Source of the DNA: a virus
Length of the DNA stretch: 53,248 bases
Direction: 5' to 3' (one strand)
IMG/VR virus record: IMGVR_UViG_3300049489_000151
Span: 1-53,248 of that record
Positions 50 through 27,909 of the stretch are shown here, in pieces. A program made the position numbers and the translations under genes. Position 1 is the first letter of the stretch. Every line of letters starts with the position of its first letter. Under the pieces are notes generated by a model, which was not told where the DNA came from, ran no database searches, and worked only from the letters and a program-made list of their open reading frames with translations.

Positions 50-124
50 TGGTACCCCCGGTGGGAATCGAACCCACGTCAGCTGGTTAAGAGCCAGCTG
101 CTACAACCACTCAGCTACGGAGGC
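50..124 (-). tRNA. tRNA-Lys (CTT)
   Basis: A complete cloverleaf reads on the minus strand. The acceptor is GCCTCCG with CGGGGGT, the anticodon loop is CTCTTAA on a GCTGG/CCAGC stem, and the T-arm is GTGGG-TTCGATT-CCCAC. The 3' CCA is encoded at 50-52. It is the last complete tRNA before the left edge of the window. Confidence 0.95.
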
Positions 125-205
125 ATGTGGGAGAGTTACGGTCCCCCCGCCGCCACACAAGCCGGTACCAGCTTGCACGGTGGAGACCAGAAGTCTCCAT
201 CTCAG

Positions 206-288
206 TCCTGCGGGAGCGAATCGAACACTCATTGCCATAACGACGGCTGTTTTACAGACAGCTTCCAGGACCACCCAGAATCCGCAGG
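206..288 (-). tRNA. tRNA-Tyr (GTA)
   Basis: The acceptor stem CCTGCGG/CCGCAGG is perfect. The anticodon loop is CTGTAAA, giving GTA. A long variable arm of about 17 bases fits the class II shape expected of bacterial tRNA-Tyr. CCA is not encoded. Confidence 0.92.
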
Positions 289-359
289 TTGAGAAGGGCT
301 GCAGTCACCTGCTTTGGATAGGGTGCCCTTCATACCCCACCTGGCTTTAGGGACCAGAG

Positions 360-438
360 CGGAAGGTGGAGGAATCGAACCCCCGCCCAAAGACGTAGCT
401 AGCTAGCAACCAGCTTGTGCGCCATGCACACACCTTCC
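360..438 (-). tRNA. tRNA-Ser (GCT)
   Basis: The acceptor GGAAGGT/ACCTTCC is perfect. The anticodon loop TTGCTAG gives GCT. A long variable arm and discriminator G73 are the expected serine identity features. CCA is not encoded. Confidence 0.92.
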
Positions 439-440
439 AT

Positions 441-560
441 TTACCCCTTACGGGATCTAATGACGTTCTGCCCCCCAGATCTGGGGGCGAACTTCACTGT
501 TGACTCGTACTTCTTGTATTTCTTGATGGTGGGGTGCGTCTTGTAGACCTTGCCCCCCAT
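441..560 (-). CDS. Possible small basic protein between tRNA genes
   Basis: A 39-codon reading frame starts at ATG 558-560 and fills the gap between tRNA-Glu and tRNA-Ser. The product would be lysine- and arginine-rich (it contains KKYKKYE and ends RSRKG). AGGT lies nine bases before the ATG as a weak ribosome site. A longer version starts at 587, but that ATG is only two bases from the end of tRNA-Glu. I recognise no family. The protein-like composition and the lack of other content make it plausible, not certain. Confidence 0.35.
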   Translation of the reverse strand: MGGKVYKTHPTIKKYKKYESTVKFAPRSGGQNVIRSRKG

Positions 561-589
561 TGCTGTACCTACGTGTCCTTTGTTCATAG

Positions 590-661
590 TACCCCCACGG
601 AGAGTCGAACTCCGTCCCAGAGCTTGAAAGGCTCTTATCCTAACCGATAGACGATGGGGGC
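590..661 (-). tRNA. tRNA-Glu (TTC)
   Basis: The acceptor GCCCCCA/TGGGGGT pairs throughout. The anticodon loop CTTTCAA sits on AGAGC/GCTCT, and the T-arm is CGGAG-TTCGACT-CTCCG. CCA is not encoded. Confidence 0.94.
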
Positions 662-881
662 ATGCAGCTTGGCCAACCACCAGTTCAATACACCGGCAGT
701 AACGTTGTCGAGAAATAGCTCTACTGACGCTAGCTGGCTTGACGAGCGCTGTGACCCGATCCTTCCGGTGGAGGGGGCGGATGGCCCCCGCATGCTTGGC
801 CCTGTCGTCCCTGCTGTAAGTGAGGGACTGTCTACCTGAGACTTCGCTCCTTGGAATATGCCCTGGATGGCGTGGTCTTTG

Positions 882-955
882 CGCTCCCACGGGGAATTGA
901 ACCCACGTCTACATCCTTGACAGGGATGCGTGCTAAACCTTCACACTCTGAGAGC
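882..955 (-). tRNA. tRNA-Asp (GTC)
   Basis: The acceptor is GCTCTCA/TGGGAGC and the anticodon loop CTGTCAA sits on CATCC/GGATG. Discriminator G73 fits aspartate. The T-stem (GTGGG against CCCCG) has two mismatches, so the T-arm is weaker than in its neighbours. About 220 bases of untranslated sequence follow before tRNA-Glu; they contain a GGGGGC hairpin but no gene I can support. Confidence 0.88.
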
Positions 956-1052
956 ATGTCTCCCGTTTCGAGACCACGGTGGGAGTGACCGAGTCGCTAC
1001 AACAGAGCAGCAGCACAGCATTACCTGTTGGCCCCTGGTGTCCATCTCTTAG

Positions 1053-1124
1053 AGGATCGTGTGGGAATTGAACCCACGTAGCAGCTTTTGCAGAGCTGTG
1101 CCTGAGCCACTCGGCCAACGATCC
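1053..1124 (-). tRNA. tRNA-Cys (GCA)
   Basis: The acceptor GGATCGT/ACGATCC is perfect. The anticodon loop CTGCAAA sits on CAGCT/AGCTG. Discriminator T73 is the cysteine ident element. T-arm: GTGGG-TTCAATT-CCCAC. Confidence 0.95.
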
Positions 1125-1209
1125 ATGAATGCCCCATTTACCAATTCTTGACGTAGCCATCTGCTTACCCGGCGACATCACCAGGTGGATTGGAGGTGGG
1201 GCCCTCCTG

Positions 1210-1284
1210 TGGTGGTTCCCTGCGGGTTCGAACCGCATCCTTGAGGATTTCAAGCTCATGTGCTTCCAGTTACACCTGAGAACC
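1210..1284 (-). tRNA. tRNA-Phe (GAA)
   Basis: The acceptor GGTTCTC/GGGAACC is followed by an encoded ACCA. The anticodon loop TTGAAAT gives GAA; the innermost pair of its stem is a C-C mismatch. The T-arm TGCGG-TTCGAAC-CCGCA is perfect. Its 5' end abuts the 5' half of the permuted tRNA at 1285-1366, with no base between them. Confidence 0.88.
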
Positions 1285-1366
1285 ATAGCGACCAGCGCTC
1301 TGCCGTTAAGCTACTCCCCCGCTTGCGTCGGGGGAGGCGGGATTCGAACCCGCACCTCTGATCTCG
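1285..1366 (-). tRNA. Candidate circularly permuted tRNA 1 (3' half before 5' half)
   Basis: Reading the minus strand, bases 1366-1329 form a tRNA 3' half: anticodon-stem strand ATCAG, variable AGGT, T-arm GCGGG-TTCGAAT-CCCGC, acceptor CTCCCCC and G73. After an 8-base linker, bases 1320-1285 form a 5' half: acceptor GGGGGAG, TA, D-arm GCTT-AACGGCA-GAGC, G26 and anticodon-stem strand CTGGT. GGGGGAG pairs with CTCCCCC over 7 of 7 positions. CTGGT pairs with ATCAG over 5 of 5 (one G-T), with a sixth C-G possible. No ordinary partner exists for either half. The halves abut tRNA-Pro upstream and tRNA-Phe downstream, so processing of those tRNAs would free both broken ends in the anticodon loop. 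The joined loop would be 10 bases, so the anticodon is not certain. Confidence 0.65.
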
Positions 1367-1437
1367 TCGGGGTGGGGAGAATCGAACTCCCATCCCGTGG
1401 TCCCAAACCACGTGTTATTCCATTTCACTACACCCCG
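1367..1437 (-). tRNA. tRNA-Pro (TGG)
   Basis: The acceptor CGGGGTG/CACCCCG is perfect. The anticodon loop TTTGGGA sits on CGTGG/CCACG. T-arm: TGGGAG with TTCGATT. Discriminator A73, no CCA. Its 3' end touches the first base of the permuted tRNA 3' half. Confidence 0.93.
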
Positions 1438-1442
1438 TAGTG

Positions 1443-1469
1443 GCTGGTTGTTTTACCGGCACAACCAGC
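1443..1469. terminator. Perfect 9-bp hairpin between tRNA-Ala and tRNA-Pro
   Basis: GCTGGTTGT and ACAACCAGC form a perfect stem around a 9-base loop. There is no T-run on either side, so it may be an RNA-processing or stability element and not a classical intrinsic terminator. A second short hairpin (GCC-TTTTA-GGC) follows at once. Confidence 0.4.
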
Positions 1470-1516
1470 AAAGCCTTTTAGGCGGACCCCTCAAATGTGC
1501 ACTATCGGGACCCGTG

Positions 1517-1589
1517 TGGAGTACCTGGGAGTCGAACCCAGATCTACTGATTGCAAGTCAGTCGTGTTAGCCACTGTCACCAGTACCCC
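1517..1589 (-). tRNA. tRNA-Ala (TGC)
   Basis: The acceptor GGGGTAC/GTACTCC pairs with one G-T. The anticodon loop CTTGCAA sits on ACTGA/TCAGT. The T-arm CTGGG-TTCGACT-CCCAG is perfect. Its 5' end directly follows the 5' half of permuted tRNA 2. Confidence 0.92.
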
Positions 1590-1671
1590 ATGCCCCAATA
1601 GCTCTGCCGTTGAGCTTACCTCGCCCCTTCCGGGACTGGGGGAGGATTCGAACCTCCATCCATTGGGTTAG
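1590..1671 (-). tRNA. Candidate circularly permuted tRNA 2 (3' half before 5' half)
   Basis: Minus-strand bases 1671-1633 form a 3' half: anticodon-stem strand CCAAT, variable GGAT, T-arm GGAGG-TTCGAAT-CCTCC and acceptor CCCAGTC. A short linker follows. Bases 1625-1590 form a 5' half: acceptor GGCGAGG, D-arm GCTC-AACGGCA-GAGC and anticodon-stem strand ATTGG. ATTGG/CCAAT pairs 5 of 5, with a sixth G-C. The acceptor pairs at 5 of 7 positions (A-C and G-A mismatches in the middle). The arrangement matches candidate 1: tRNA-Val ends one base before the 3' half, tRNA-Ala starts one base after the 5' half, and the joined loop would again be 10 bases. The acceptor mismatches make it a weaker case than candidate 1. 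Confidence 0.55.
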
Positions 1672-1743
1672 TGCGTGTGACAGGATTCGAACCTGCATCA
1701 CAAAGGGTGTAAACCTTCCGCTCAGCCGTTGAGCTACACACGC
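1672..1743 (-). tRNA. tRNA-Val (TAC)
   Basis: The acceptor GCGTGTG/CACACGC is perfect. D-arm GCTC-AACGGCT-GAGC. The anticodon loop TTTACAC sits on GAAGG/CCTTT. T-arm GCAGG-TTCGAAT-CCTGT. Confidence 0.94.
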
Positions 1744-1747
1744 ATGT

Positions 1748-1856
1748 GACAGAGTCTCGCAGGAGAGGCGAAAGACGACGACGTCTTATATAGATTGGAC
1801 TGCATCACCGAACTACACGCACACCCGAAAGGAATCCGAAGGGGGCGCTCTGTCAT
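1748..1856 (-). ncRNA. Possible structured RNA or degenerate tRNA between tRNA-Arg and tRNA-Val
   Basis: The 8-base arms TGACAGAG and CTCTGTCA close a region of about 105 bases. Inside, near the 3' side, TTCGC-CTCTCCT-GCGAG makes a 5+7+5 hairpin placed like a T-arm but lacking the TTCNA loop. I cannot find an anticodon arm, so it is either a decayed tRNA or a different small RNA. Confidence 0.25.
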
Positions 1857-1866
1857 GTGTAGTTTA

Positions 1867-1938
1867 TGGTGCCCCCGGAAAGAGTCGAACTCTCTGCTCA
1901 AGGTTCGTAGCCTCGATACCCAATCCCTGGGCGGGGGC
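1867..1938 (-). tRNA. tRNA-Arg (ACG)
   Basis: The acceptor GCCCCCG/CGGGGGC is perfect with encoded ACCA. The anticodon loop CTACGAA sits on CGAGG/CCTTG. T-arm AGAG-TTCGACT-CTTT. Confidence 0.93.
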
Positions 1939-1946
1939 ATGTTGAG

Positions 1947-2021
1947 TGCTTCTCGTGGGATTCGAACCCACACTGACTGCGTTTTGAATGCAGTTCCTCT
2001 GCCTAGTTGGGATAGAGAAGC
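1947..2021 (-). tRNA. tRNA, anticodon probably CAA (Leu)
   Basis: The acceptor GCTTCTC/GAGAAGC is perfect and the T-arm is GTGGG-TTCGAAT-CCCAC. The anticodon arm is ACTGC/GCAGT around a 9-base loop ATTCAAAAC; treating the A-C as a mispair leaves TTCAAAA and anticodon CAA. The variable region is only about 5 bases, unlike a normal class II leucine tRNA. Isotype is therefore uncertain. Confidence 0.75.
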
Positions 2022-2027
2022 ATGAAG

Positions 2028-2101
2028 TGCCCCCCCTGGGATTCGAACCCAGACTGCCGTGGGCCTAAACCACGTGCCTCCTGCCTTTGGGCTAGAGGGG
2101 C
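2028..2101 (-). tRNA. tRNA-Leu (TAG), short variable arm
   Basis: The acceptor GCCCCTC/GGGGGGC pairs with one G-T. The anticodon loop TTTAGGC sits on CGTGG/CCACG. The variable region is the five bases GCAGT, so a leucine anticodon sits in a class I body. Confidence 0.85.
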
Positions 2102-2235
2102 AAAGACCCCCGGCCGGAAAGACCGGGGGCATCCCATGTTGACGCTTCACCAAGGTTGCGACCCTTAGTGCTCAACTAGCCGAACCCGTGACCCGTAGGT
2201 CACGTGAACGACACATCCCTAGGGGGAGGGACCGG

Positions 2236-2308
2236 TGCGCCCACTGGGATTCGAACCCAGACTGAGCAGGGTTTAAACCCGCTGCCTCTACCGTTGGACT
2301 ATGGGCGC
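2236..2308 (-). tRNA. tRNA-Leu (TAA), short variable arm
   Basis: The acceptor GCGCCCA/TGGGCGC is perfect. The anticodon loop TTTAAAC sits on GCGGG/CCTGC. T-arm CTGGG-TTCGAAT-CCCAG. The variable region is again short, as in the other two leucine-anticodon tRNAs of this cluster. Confidence 0.86.
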
Positions 2309-2314
2309 ATGTCA

Positions 2315-2385
2315 TGGTCCCGGCACGAGGTTTCGAACCTCGCTGGAATCCGTATGAGAGATACGTGGTCACCAGACCTACCGGG
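2315..2385 (-). tRNA. tRNA, isotype unclear (TCT or CTC)
   Basis: The acceptor CCCGGTA/TGCCGGG is followed by encoded ACCA, and the T-arm CGAGG-TTCGAAA-CCTCG is perfect. The anticodon hairpin CGTAT-CTCTC-ATACG closes too tightly; opening one pair gives TCT (Arg), while keeping T33 gives CTC (Glu). The D-arm is short. It may be a diverging tRNA. Confidence 0.65.
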
Positions 2386-2556
2386 TTATTGCCAGGCTTT
2401 GAGTAGCTAACTCTTCGTGAGGAGGACTAGCTAAGTCCCCTGGCTGCCTCACACACGAACCTTCCCCTTAACCGTGCTGGGTACCCGACACTCGTCTGCC
2501 GGGTGGGCCTGACTACTTAGTCCCAGTCAGGATTGGACTCTGGTAGCTAACCCAGA

Positions 2557-2648
2557 TGGAGGCGGGGGCTGGAATCGAACCAGCGTGTCCTAACGGACCT
2601 GAGGCTTATGAGACCTAGGAGGGAGCACCAACGCCCTTCGTCCCCGAC
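2557..2648 (-). tRNA. tRNA with CAT anticodon and long variable arm
   Basis: The acceptor GTCGGGG/CCCCGCC has one mismatch (T2-C71) and is followed by encoded TCCA. The anticodon loop CTCATAA gives CAT. The T-arm GCTGG-TTCGATT-CCAGC is perfect. Unlike any methionine or isoleucine tRNA, it has a 16-base variable arm with a GTCC-GTTA-GGAC hairpin, which is a serine/leucine/tyrosine feature. The charged amino acid is therefore open. Confidence 0.75.
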
Positions 2649-2694
2649 ATGAGTTTTGAGAGCTACAAGAGGCGCTAACGTGCGCAAACTCGCT

Positions 2695-2785
2695 GACTTG
2701 TCGCCGCTTGAAAGGCAGCCGCTGGGCCAAACAGCTTTACCCCACTCATCTCAGGCGGGGTCGGGGAGTTGAACCCCAGTGTCAT
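2695..2785 (-). tRNA. Possible third rearranged tRNA next to the HNH gene
   Basis: On the minus strand a T-arm TGGGG-TTCAACT-CCCCG with acceptor ACCCCGC (2778-2755) comes first. A 9-base linker follows, and then acceptor GTGGGGT (2745-2739), D-arm GCTG-TTTGGCC-CAGC and a full anticodon arm GCTGC-CTTTCAA-GCGGC (anticodon TTC). The two acceptor strands pair 7 of 7 and no other partner is nearby. Here the break would lie after the anticodon arm, not inside its loop. The HNH gene ends about 60 bases upstream. Confidence 0.4.
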
Positions 2786-2844
2786 GCTAATTGATGCACC
2801 ATTTCCTTGGCGCTCTCAGCACACTCCCGACGTAATGAGCGTCG

Positions 2845-3324
2845 TCACCTCAATAGGTGCGGAGCGTATGTACGCAGTATCGTTTCGGCGTACTCGATCT
2901 TGTCTTCGACTCGCTGTCCTCTGGGCTGCCAACGAGACCACAGCTCTAGGTTCTCAATGCGGTTGTCATTCCTTATACCGTTTTTGTGATGTACTGACTC
3001 GTGCTCGGTAAGGGGGCGACCTAGGTACTGCTCCATCATCCAACGATGTTGGGATACCGTTCTCTTCCTCCAGTTGGCTACTAGGTAGCCGTCTTTGGAC
3101 ACGTACCAAGACGGTTCAGAGGGGACCCTACATGCGGAGCATTGAGAGCTTGTCTTTAGCTTAGGAGTTCCGCAGGTGCAGGTGTCTTTGCGTAGGTGGT
3201 AGTTCTGCTTTCTTCTAGTCGTCCAACAGTCTTTGCACGTACTTGCAAGCCCGTTCTTCTTTCTCGGGTCTTTCCAGAAGTCTTCTTCTGGTTTATCGGT
3301 CAGGCAGTTCTTACAAGTCGTCAT
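2845..3324 (-). CDS. HNH homing-type endonuclease inside the tRNA cluster
   Basis: This is probably a free-standing HNH nuclease of about 159 residues. The N-terminus has a CKNC...CKDC zinc pair and CTCG...CSAC makes a second one. The catalytic part carries HRWMMEQ, then ESVHHKNGIRNDNRIENLEL, the usual HH...N...N core of phage homing endonucleases. I chose the ATG at 3324 because a TACACT -10 box ends 7 bases before it, as in the other leaderless genes here. The gene sits between tRNA-Trp and the rearranged tRNA at 2695-2785. Homing nucleases often target tRNA genes, so it may have caused or spread the rearrangements; that link is inference. Confidence 0.85.
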   Translation of the reverse strand: MTTCKNCLTDKPEEDFWKDPRKKNGLASTCKDCWTTRRKQNYHLRKDTCTCGTPKLKTSSQCSACRVPSEPSWYVSKDGYLVANWRKRTVSQHRWMMEQYLGRPLTEHESVHHKNGIRNDNRIENLELWSRWQPRGQRVEDKIEYAETILRTYAPHLLR

Positions 3325-3331
3325 GGAGACG

Positions 3332-3337
3332 AGTGTA
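3332..3337 (-). promoter_or_regulatory. -10 box for the HNH gene
   Basis: TACACT lies 7 bases before the ATG at 3324. The -35 region is poor (TGCGT at the 17-base position). It lies in the spacer after tRNA-Trp. Confidence 0.4.
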
Positions 3338-3357
3338 ACACTTTCCAAGCCAATACG

Positions 3358-3425
3358 CACCGGTGTCAGGACTCGAACCCGAGTTCATGGTTTTGGAGAC
3401 CAATCAGCTTCCTAAGCGCACCGGT
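3358..3425 (-). tRNA. tRNA-Trp (CCA)
   Basis: The acceptor ACCGGTG/CACCGGT is perfect. The anticodon loop CTCCAAA gives CCA and G73 fits tryptophan. The D-arm is unusually small (GCTT-AGG-AAGC). Confidence 0.9.
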
Positions 3426-3574
3426 ATGTACTAGAGGTTCACGTTCTTGCCTCTAGTGCCAGACATTGCGACCTGGTCTCCTGGTTAGGGAGAGGTAGCC
3501 TGGCTATTTTACATGCCTTCACCACACGTAAGGTACGAACCACCCCCGAAGGGGCCGGGTGTCAATCGTAGTCG

Positions 3575-3655
3575 AGGAGGGTGGAGGAGTCGAACCCCTA
3601 CCGTTAGGTACCCTAGGGTTCAAACCTAGTTGCTCACCTCTGAGCGGCACCCTCC
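3575..3655 (-). tRNA. tRNA-Ser (TGA)
   Basis: The acceptor GGAGGGT/ACCCTCC is perfect. The anticodon loop TTTGAAC sits on CTAGG/CCTAG and a 14-base variable arm is present. Discriminator is T, not the usual G of serine tRNAs. It is the first tRNA of the cluster in transcription order. Confidence 0.92.
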
Positions 3656-26000: not shown

Positions 26001-26434
26001 GACTGATGACCGTTCATGAAGACATCAACACACTCAGCGCCGCAAGCTGCGTACCCAGCGGTGTCAATCCAATGGTCTTCCTTAGTCGGAGACCACGACA
26101 GCCTGCTGATCTTAAGTAGGTTCATCATGATGGCTACGTCCCAGGTGTCGATGAGGTCTTCTAGAGCCCACCTAAGAGACGGGTCTAGGTCATCGATGTT
26201 GCCCCCCATCTTACGGGATAGGACACCCATCAAGTGGGTGTTCCAGTACTTAGCGGTGCGCTTGAAGTCTTCTGTAGGGTCACCGTACGATACGTTACGG
26301 TCCCCATTGACCAAAGAGTCTGCGCTAGTCAGTACCCTCTCTCTGACGTTGTCTCTTTTAGAGACGAGCTTCTGCTCTGCTTGTGCTTCTTTCTTAACAA
26401 GTGTGCTGTAGTCGTTTGCTGCTGACATTACCAT
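25997..26434 (-). CDS. DUF6378-like phage protein
   Basis: The 145-residue product has RERVLTSADSLVNGDRNVSY, then a long helix, IMMNLLKISRLSWSPTKEDH and GYAACGAECVDVF. I know this pattern from a widespread phage family (DUF6378) of unknown function. GGAG lies five bases before the ATG at 26434. The neighbouring HD enzyme may indicate a nucleotide-related role. Confidence 0.78.
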   Translation of the reverse strand: MVMSAANDYSTLVKKEAQAEQKLVSKRDNVRERVLTSADSLVNGDRNVSYGDPTEDFKRTAKYWNTHLMGVLSRKMGGNIDDLDPSLRWALEDLIDTWDVAIMMNLLKISRLSWSPTKEDHWIDTAGYAACGAECVDVFMNGHQS

Positions 26435-27909
26435 TACTTCTCCTCTACTACTTCGGCATCAACAATGTCACTAGTCATAGATGACATAATCTCAGCTGCC
26501 GAGTTGCTACTGATGGGTTGCGATAGTTCACGTGCCTTTTCTCCAGCACCCTTACCAAAGATACGGGAGAGTACACCTGCACTACCTCTTGCTTCCATCT
26601 CCACACGTAGAACATCACGTGTATCGGAGATGTCTTTGAATCGTCCAATCATATTGATAAGGCGATCCATTTCCTTGGAAAGCTGAGGGTCCATGCCCTG
26701 TCCTTCCAGTTCTTCCGCAAACGCAGCGAACATGACTCTGCTGCTTTGCATCTCTAACATGGCACGAATGAGCGCCATGAGCTGATCCTTGGTCTTGAGT
26801 TCCACGGGGATCTCGTACGCACATTCTGCTCCCCCCCTCATTGCAGGGCAACGGGGGGCAAGGTAGCAATTATCACAGTTACGCAGTTTGCCACCCTTGT
26901 AGACGACATTGGTGGACCTCTTTGGGTCCACTTCTATGCCGTCATCAGGGTTTTCAGGGTGGGTGTCCCCCTTTGTGACTACCTGTTCGATACCTATAAC
27001 CGGTAGCAATCGAACCTCATCAGAATTGCGAGGCTCAGGGGTGGTGATAGCAATAGCTGCACTACTGTTTTGAGAGTTAGAGCTTCTAGCCGTATTGTCA
27101 AGGTAGTTGCTACCTTGAGCCTCTGACGGCACTTCTTGCTCGTCGTCTAGGTACGAATCTGGCGCTTGCTGAGGGTCATAGGCAGTCTCTGGTGATGTTC
27201 CGTAGTTGCTCATTTCCCATTCAAGCCAAGAGCGGATAGCCAGTTTTGACACTTCATCGATGTTGTCTTCCATGACCTCATCGTAATCAACACCCATGCG
27301 AGCAATAGCTGCTCTGTTAGAGCGTCTAGCGCTCTCTTTCTGTTGCGCTGGGTACCTTCGAAGGCCGTGCCCATCCCATATCTGGGTCTCTCCGTAGCGG
27401 ACGACAGATGTCCATGATGAGACGATAACGATGTCCCAATCCACAGCTTCGATCATGTCAGTCTTACTGGTTAGCCCTATAAGGGTGCTGCCCCAGCGCT
27501 GCTGTAGCTGCTTAATACGTGGGATAGTTGTCTTGTTTAATGCCTTGTCTGATATGGCGACACGGCCCACCTTTTCACATAAATAAGCGAGCCGTTCTAG
27601 GTCTTCTCCGTCGTTCCAGACTGGTACGTACTTCTCACCGATCCAGTCGCCGTTGTATCCGGGCATACCAATGATCAGCTCTAGGCTATCAAGATGCTCA
27701 CGAACGAACGTGTCGAACCTATCAGTGTCTTCGTCAGTCTCTGACGTGTACAAGTACAGTAGAGCATCTTGGAACTTCTCTTTGAGATCCAACTCTTTAC
27801 GCTTAGGAATGGATAGCTGCGTCAGGTTGACACCAATACGTCGTACACCGTTCGACAACAGAACTGAGCGATAAGAGCCTCGTTCTCCTCCACTCAACAC
27901 AATCCTCAT
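26434..27909 (-). CDS. Large unrecognised protein with cysteine cluster
   Basis: The 491-residue protein starts MRIVLSGGERGSYRSVLLSN and its first 200 residues look like an alpha/beta fold of the TIM-barrel kind. A disordered serine/glutamine-rich linker follows. Then comes a cysteine cluster (CDNCYLAPRCPAMRGGAEC) that could bind zinc or iron-sulfur, and a helical C-terminus. I cannot assign a function. Its size and position between nucleotide enzymes make it worth a structure prediction. The start is fixed by an ATGA overlap. Confidence 0.8.
   Translation of the reverse strand: MRIVLSGGERGSYRSVLLSNGVRRIGVNLTQLSIPKRKELDLKEKFQDALLYLYTSETDEDTDRFDTFVREHLDSLELIIGMPGYNGDWIGEKYVPVWNDGEDLERLAYLCEKVGRVAISDKALNKTTIPRIKQLQQRWGSTLIGLTSKTDMIEAVDWDIVIVSSWTSVVRYGETQIWDGHGLRRYPAQQKESARRSNRAAIARMGVDYDEVMEDNIDEVSKLAIRSWLEWEMSNYGTSPETAYDPQQAPDSYLDDEQEVPSEAQGSNYLDNTARSSNSQNSSAAIAITTPEPRNSDEVRLLPVIGIEQVVTKGDTHPENPDDGIEVDPKRSTNVVYKGGKLRNCDNCYLAPRCPAMRGGAECAYEIPVELKTKDQLMALIRAMLEMQSSRVMFAAFAEELEGQGMDPQLSKEMDRLINMIGRFKDISDTRDVLRVEMEARGSAGVLSRIFGKGAGEKARELSQPISSNSAAEIMSSMTSDIVDAEVVEEK

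What the first reader, a model, noticed from the sequence alone, without database searches (positions are those of the whole stretch)
1285..1366. Circularly permuted tRNA gene (candidate 1)
The minus strand carries a complete tRNA 3' half followed by a complete 5' half, in reversed order. The acceptor strands GGGGGAG/CTCCCCC pair at 7 of 7 positions and the anticodon-stem strands CTGGT/ATCAG at 5 of 5, although they lie in opposite order to a normal tRNA. Both halves are tightly enclosed by tRNA-Pro and tRNA-Phe, so RNase P and 3'-end cleavage of those neighbours would free the anticodon-loop ends. Permuted tRNAs are established in some red and green algae and archaea; I know of no accepted case in a tailed phage. 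A tRNA nicked in its anticodon loop would need a ligase. It could relate to escape from host anticodon nucleases; that last point is inference.
Basis: partly seen in the sequence, partly recalled or inferred. Interest (0 to 1): 0.92.

Follow-up and report, generated by a model that had tools for sequence, protein, structure and literature searches.

The report
Closed tRNA-mimic RNA in phage tRNA-array
The backwards tRNA found in this phage is real and conserved, but it looks like a relative of the known bacterial 'Y RNAs' (RNAs shaped like a tRNA whose halves are swapped and whose ends are sealed) tucked between ordinary tRNA genes without the usual Ro60 partner signal, rather than a gene for a working tRNA.

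Summary
Window 1285-1366(-) encodes T-arm, acceptor hairpin, D-arm and a basal (anticodon-type) stem in permuted order. Acceptor strands pair 7/7 and basal strands 5/5 (6/6 with one more pair). None of 974 real tandem tRNA pairs does this. The element is conserved: every Beephvirinae Streptomyces phage found carries it, unannotated, between tRNA-Pro and tRNA-Gly, and array elements in other phages match. Both split stems covary (55 compensatory cells, 0/500 shuffles).

The permutation is that of YrlA-type bacterial Y RNAs, already known in phages and known to be circular permutations of tRNA. The joined molecule has G, not U, at position 33. Several relatives have bulged acceptor stems, and no RNA ligase or RtcB was found in the window or the complete relatives. 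A decoding tRNA is therefore unlikely.

It differs from ordinary phage Y RNAs. It abuts a tRNA's discriminator base, has only a 6-bp basal stem, lacks the GGTTA motif of Ro-adjacent Y RNAs (0/15 versus 13/24), and occurs in complete genomes without TROVE/Ro60. One phage has both a Ro-adjacent Y RNA and a separate in-array element. Best reading: a Ro-independent variant of the YrlA tRNA-mimic module. Its function is inferred.

The parts
1285..1366 (-). Element c1: closed, circularly permuted tRNA-like RNA
   Evidence: (77.4 bits with model R1)
1358..1363 (-). basal (anticodon-type) stem, 5' strand GATCAG
   Evidence: covaries in relatives
1290..1295 (-). basal stem, 3' strand CTGGTC
   Evidence: covaries
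1337..1353 (-). T-arm GCGGG-TTCGAAT-CCCGC
1330..1336 (-). acceptor-type stem, 3'-half strand CTCCCCC
   Evidence: covaries at 6 of 7 pairs
1321..1329 (-). loop GACGCAAGC that closes the acceptor stem (no CCA)
1314..1320 (-). acceptor-type stem, 5'-half strand GGGGGAG
1297..1311 (-). D-arm GCTT-AACGGCA-GAGC with the GG of the D-loop
1364..1366 (-). CGA between the tRNA-Pro discriminator base and the basal stem; the same CGA stands there in 12 of 13 aligned elements (three of these were found with a pattern that required it)
1367..1437 (-). tRNA-Pro(TGG), upstream neighbour
1213..1284 (-). tRNA-Phe(GAA), downstream neighbour, with TAT in place of the CAT leader seen before most tRNAs of this array
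1590..1670 (-). Element c2: second, weaker permuted module (basal stem CCCAAT/ATTGGG, acceptor hairpin with an internal loop and a GGAA cap) between tRNA-Val and tRNA-Ala
   Evidence: (32.8 bits, within the range of ordinary tandem tRNAs)

Best explanation
The locus encodes a small structured RNA of the YrlA kind: T-arm, capped acceptor-like hairpin and D-arm closed by a 5-6 bp basal stem, a tRNA mimic with its ends in the anticodon arm. It is transcribed with the tRNA array and probably freed by the enzymes that trim the 3' end of tRNA-Pro and the 5' end of tRNA-Phe (inferred). It lacks the Ro60-linked upstream part of phage Y RNAs and is kept by phages in which no Ro60 was found, so it most likely works without Ro60, as a stable tRNA mimic that occupies host proteins recognising the tRNA elbow: PNPase (known partner of the YrlA tRNA-like domain), tRNA-modifying enzymes, or tRNA-attacking defence nucleases (inferred; which one is not known). 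Shown: anatomy, conservation, covariation, tRNA-array context, absence of the Ro motif, and absence of TROVE, DUF2828, RNA ligase and RtcB matches in the complete relatives tested. Inferred: processing, binding partner and benefit to the phage.
For: Same order of modules as Rfam YrlA; model R1, built from these elements alone, finds the known Ro-adjacent phage Y RNAs. Unannotated, same place between tRNA-Pro and tRNA-Gly in Beephvirinae isolates. In-array elements after other tRNAs in other phages: tRNA-Val (L096), tRNA-Gly (L215), tRNA-Pro (L199, L204), tRNA-Met in an actinobacterial MAG (L228). Covariation: 14 pairs with changes on both sides, 55 cells, 0/500 shuffles for the covariation score, sliding control fails. 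GGTTA upstream in 13/24 modules of TROVE-bearing loci, 0/15 in-array ones, background 4%. No TROVE in four complete Beephvirinae genomes, no DUF2828 in five. Phage G035 has a Ro-adjacent Y RNA at 158072 with CGGTTACC and TROVE at 158401, plus a separate in-array element at 150742.
Against: No expression data. Rfam YrlA score 28.0 is far below the gathering score 69, although Ro-adjacent phage Y RNAs (28.9-45) also fall below it. The window is a 53-kb fragment, so a Ro60 gene elsewhere in its genome is not excluded. TROVE genes occur in 42 of 297 Actinomycetes genomes, mostly large ones, so a host Ro60 could bind it. Divergent Ro-like proteins could escape the profiles. Alignments A4/A5 were normalised by hand.
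Confidence: 0.62

Rival explanations
1. An ordinary Y RNA that binds a Ro60 protein, either the host's or one encoded on the missing part of this phage's genome; the Ro-binding part is cryptic or short.
For: Same tRNA-like module; Ro-like genes in 42/297 Actinomycetes genomes, mostly 8-11 Mb; some phages with in-array elements also encode TROVE (L199/G035).
Against: The GGTTA motif seen upstream of Ro-adjacent Y RNAs, also beside two actinomycete TROVE genes (one exact, one CGGTTTTC), is absent in 15/15 in-array elements, whose upstream sequence is a tRNA gene. G035 keeps a separate Ro-adjacent Y RNA besides the in-array one.
Confidence: 0.2
2. A true permuted tRNA gene: ends freed by RNase P and 3'-processing, joined in the anticodon loop, acceptor loop then cut, giving a tRNA.
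For: Both split stems pair and covary. If 3' trimming stopped at CG(U/C), joining to CGAG would give a 7-nt loop with anticodon NCG in most members. Known permuted tRNAs can have intervening sequences of 1-74 bp (PMC3978253), so the short acceptor loop does not exclude it.
Against: Position 33 would be G; A20 not conserved; bulges in the acceptor stems of Abafar, FlowerPower, L204, L096, L199. No RNA ligase or RtcB found in the window or five complete phages. Known maturation uses bulge-helix-bulge splicing enzymes of eukaryotes and archaea (PMC3978253). GNRA- and UUCG-type caps in some members suggest a sealed hairpin.
Confidence: 0.05
3. A chance or decaying juxtaposition: two tRNA genes that lost their outer halves.
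For: Tandem arrays put 3' and 5' halves next to each other (one search uses this as its null); duplicated tRNAs could give matching stems.
Against: 0 of 974 tandem pairs give 7/7 plus 5/5; conserved place and compensatory changes in both split stems across phages.
Confidence: 0.03
4. A cis-acting spacer hairpin that helps processing of the tRNA precursor and has no function once cut out.
For: Always sits between two tRNAs or right after one; leader CAT/TAT before the next tRNA in the window.
Against: Many neighbouring tRNAs in the same arrays stand 0-5 nt apart without such an element; conserved D/T loops (GG and TTCRA) suggest selection for a tRNA-like elbow.
Confidence: 0.1

Closest known systems
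YrlA-type bacterial Y RNA (Rfam RF02553; structure PDB 6CU1)
   Same: T-arm, capped acceptor-like hairpin, D-arm in circularly permuted order; tRNA elbow sequences conserved; found in phages
   Different: no Ro-linked upstream part or GGTTA motif; basal stem only 5-6 bp; embedded between tRNA genes; present in complete genomes without a detected Ro60
Circularly permuted tRNA genes of algae and Thermofilum (34 genes, PMC3978253)
   Same: 3' half before 5' half with a short intervening sequence
   Different: no U33, bulge-helix-bulge splicing not known in bacteria, bulged acceptors in several members, no ligase found
Phage YrlA beside 'Ro-like RNA binding protein' (Mycobacterium phages Sparky, prophiGD43A-5; Streptomyces phage Frankenweenie)
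   Same: homologous tRNA-like core by BLAST and covariance model
   Different: those are next to a Ro gene and carry GGTTA; this one is not and does not

Membership tests
YrlA-type bacterial Y RNA | tRNA-like module in permuted order with a capped acceptor stem | tested here: met
   permutation described in PMC11472068
YrlA-type bacterial Y RNA | Rfam RF02553 gathering score (69 bits) | tested here: not met
   28.0 bits; Ro-adjacent phage Y RNAs also miss it at 28.9-45 bits, so it does not discriminate here
YrlA-type bacterial Y RNA | long basal stem of the 5' and 3' ends that tethers Ro60/Rsr (PMC8394870) | tested here: not met
   only 6 bp before the neighbouring tRNAs begin; no GGTTA motif; the motif itself is an empirical marker found here
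YrlA-type bacterial Y RNA | Ro60 (TROVE) gene in the same genome | tested here: not met
   none in the window (fragment) nor in four complete Beephvirinae genomes
YrlA-type bacterial Y RNA | binds Ro60 and PNPase | not testable with these tools
   needs biochemistry
Circularly permuted tRNA gene | 3' half precedes 5' half; all four stems form | tested here: met
Circularly permuted tRNA gene | functional anticodon loop with U33 after joining | tested here: not met
   G33 in c1; U33 in 1 of 13 (alignment)
Circularly permuted tRNA gene | circular intermediate and mature, charged tRNA | not testable with these tools
   no RNA data; no RNA ligase PF09414 or RtcB in window or relatives, host enzymes not tested

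The most novel reading that the evidence does not exclude
The freed RNA is sealed into a circle, or matured into a tRNA-like molecule with a CG(U/C)CGAG loop, making it the first permuted tRNA or circular tRNA mimic of bacteria and phages.
Probability: 0.05. Interest if true: 0.92.

Novelty: new variant of a known kind. Interest (0 to 1): 0.57.

Why it matters
It shows that the tRNA-mimic core of Y RNAs is kept by phages on its own, inside tRNA arrays and in complete genomes without a detected Ro60. That makes it testable what the tRNA-like half does by itself, including whether it helps phages resist defences that attack tRNAs. It also explains conserved unannotated gaps in many phage tRNA arrays that standard tRNA finders skip.

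Tried and rejected
Shuffled-sequence null alone (too easy; replaced by a null from real tandem tRNAs). Acceptor loop length as evidence against a permuted tRNA (dropped, because known intervening sequences are 1-74 bp). Rfam gathering threshold as a membership test (uninformative, since Ro-adjacent phage Y RNAs fail it too). R1 scores under about 50 bits as evidence (dropped, since ordinary tandem tRNAs reach 49 bits), so c2, L228 and L199 rest on structure and context. Tail sequence CGCTAT as an element-specific motif (its end is the leader CAT/TAT seen before most tRNAs of the array). Arthrobacter phage Kepler and Streptomyces phage Wofford hits (T-arm only). Window relatives by DNA polymerase: no TROVE and no R1 hit in the nine records searched.

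Full report
What is there. The minus strand of 1285-1366 reads CGA, basal strand GATCAG, AGGT, a T-arm (GCGGG-TTCGAAT-CCCGC), CTCCCCC, the loop GACGCAAGC, GGGGGAG, TA, a D-arm (GCTT-AACGGCA-GAGC), G, CTGGTC and GCTAT. RNA folding gives this structure. tRNA-Pro ends directly before it and tRNA-Phe begins right after it. In 974 real tandem tRNA pairs of the fetched loci, none has upstream and downstream halves that match at 7/7 and 5/5, and 0.08% of random combinations do.

Relatives. BLAST joins tRNA-Pro and the element to Streptomyces phages Abafar and JXY1. In Beephvirinae isolates the gap between tRNA-Pro and tRNA-Gly holds the same element, never annotated in the records read. IMG/VR adds L005-L010 and L204. 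Elements of the same build directly after other tRNAs were found in L096 (tRNA-Val), L215 (tRNA-Gly), L133, L199 (tRNA-Pro) and in an actinobacterial MAG, L228 (tRNA-Met).

Covariation. On 13 elements 95.8% of cells are standard pairs, 14 pairs have changes on both sides in 55 cells, no shuffle of 500 reaches the covariation score, and sliding the partners destroys the pairing. The basal helix covaries at 5 of 6 pairs and the acceptor helix at 6 of 7. Caveats: acceptor loops were replaced by N, single bulged bases were dropped in Abafar, FlowerPower and L228, the L199 T-arm was adjusted, and acceptor strands of three members were masked. L199, L204 and L228 were found with a pattern that required ACGA.

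What kind of thing. Rfam gives a weak YrlA match (28.0 bits), and BLAST of the element leads to modules beside 'Ro-like RNA binding protein' genes. The Rfam YrlA consensus has the order T-arm, capped acceptor, D-arm. The literature describes the Y RNA as a circular permutation of tRNA (PMC11472068), its basal stem as the Rsr tether and its tRNA-like domain as the PNPase binder (PMC8394870). Y RNAs are already reported in mycobacteriophages (cited in PMC12282133).

How it differs. TROVE is absent from the window (a fragment) and from four complete Beephvirinae genomes. DUF2828, RNA ligase PF09414 and RtcB are absent from the window and five complete Beephvirinae genomes. Thirteen of 24 modules in TROVE-bearing loci carry GGTTA in the 75 nt before the T-loop, and several others a similar sequence; 0 of 15 in-array elements do, against 4% background. 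In the 190-kb phage record G035, TROVE at 158401 has its own Y RNA at 158072 with CGGTTACC, while a separate in-array element lies at 150742 between two tRNA-Pro genes. This is the best evidence that the in-array form is a variant of its own.

Why not a tRNA. If 3' trimming stopped at CG(U/C), joining to CGAG would give a 7-nt loop with anticodon NCG, which looks tempting. But position 33 is then G, the Arg identity base A20 (own knowledge of tRNA-Arg identity) is not conserved, and several relatives have bulged acceptors. Known permuted tRNAs mature through bulge-helix-bulge splicing (PMC3978253), and no ligase was found in these phages. I put this at 5%.

Mechanism. Most likely the tRNA-processing enzymes of the host release a sealed tRNA mimic, which then acts without Ro60 on proteins that hold the tRNA elbow. 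The release and the partner are inference. A host Ro60 as partner stays possible: 42 of 297 Actinomycetes genomes have TROVE.

Noticed in passing
window 1590-1670 (-): Second permuted module between tRNA-Val and tRNA-Ala with a GGAA-capped, internally looped acceptor hairpin; 32.8 bits with R1, within the range of ordinary tandem tRNAs.
   Followed up: partly
L016 1992-2076 (Pseudoalteromonas phage J2-1): YrlA-like module (51.4 bits with R1, 45 bits with Rfam) directly upstream of a DUF2828 (PF11443) gene and no TROVE, suggesting DUF2828 as another Ro-like partner; similar CAGCAA upstream sequences in L084, L099, L165.
   Followed up: partly
L013 1989-2072 and 2144-2220 (Gordonia phage GodonK): Two permuted modules in a complete phage genome in which neither TROVE nor DUF2828 was found.
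   Followed up: partly
L117 5187-5259 and 5328-5410: Two permuted modules about 150 bases apart in a 64-kb viral contig without a TROVE match.
   Followed up: no
window 50-3655 (-): Most tRNA genes of the array are preceded by CAT at -3 to -1, a possible shared processing signal.
   Followed up: no
window 1866-1940 (-): Apparent tRNA-Arg(ACG) with an unusual D-arm that neither ARAGORN nor Rfam calls; read by eye.
   Followed up: no
window 26434-27909 (-): Protein matching the PHROG for queuine tRNA-ribosyltransferase (E 7e-36), a possible tRNA or DNA base-modification gene.
   Followed up: no
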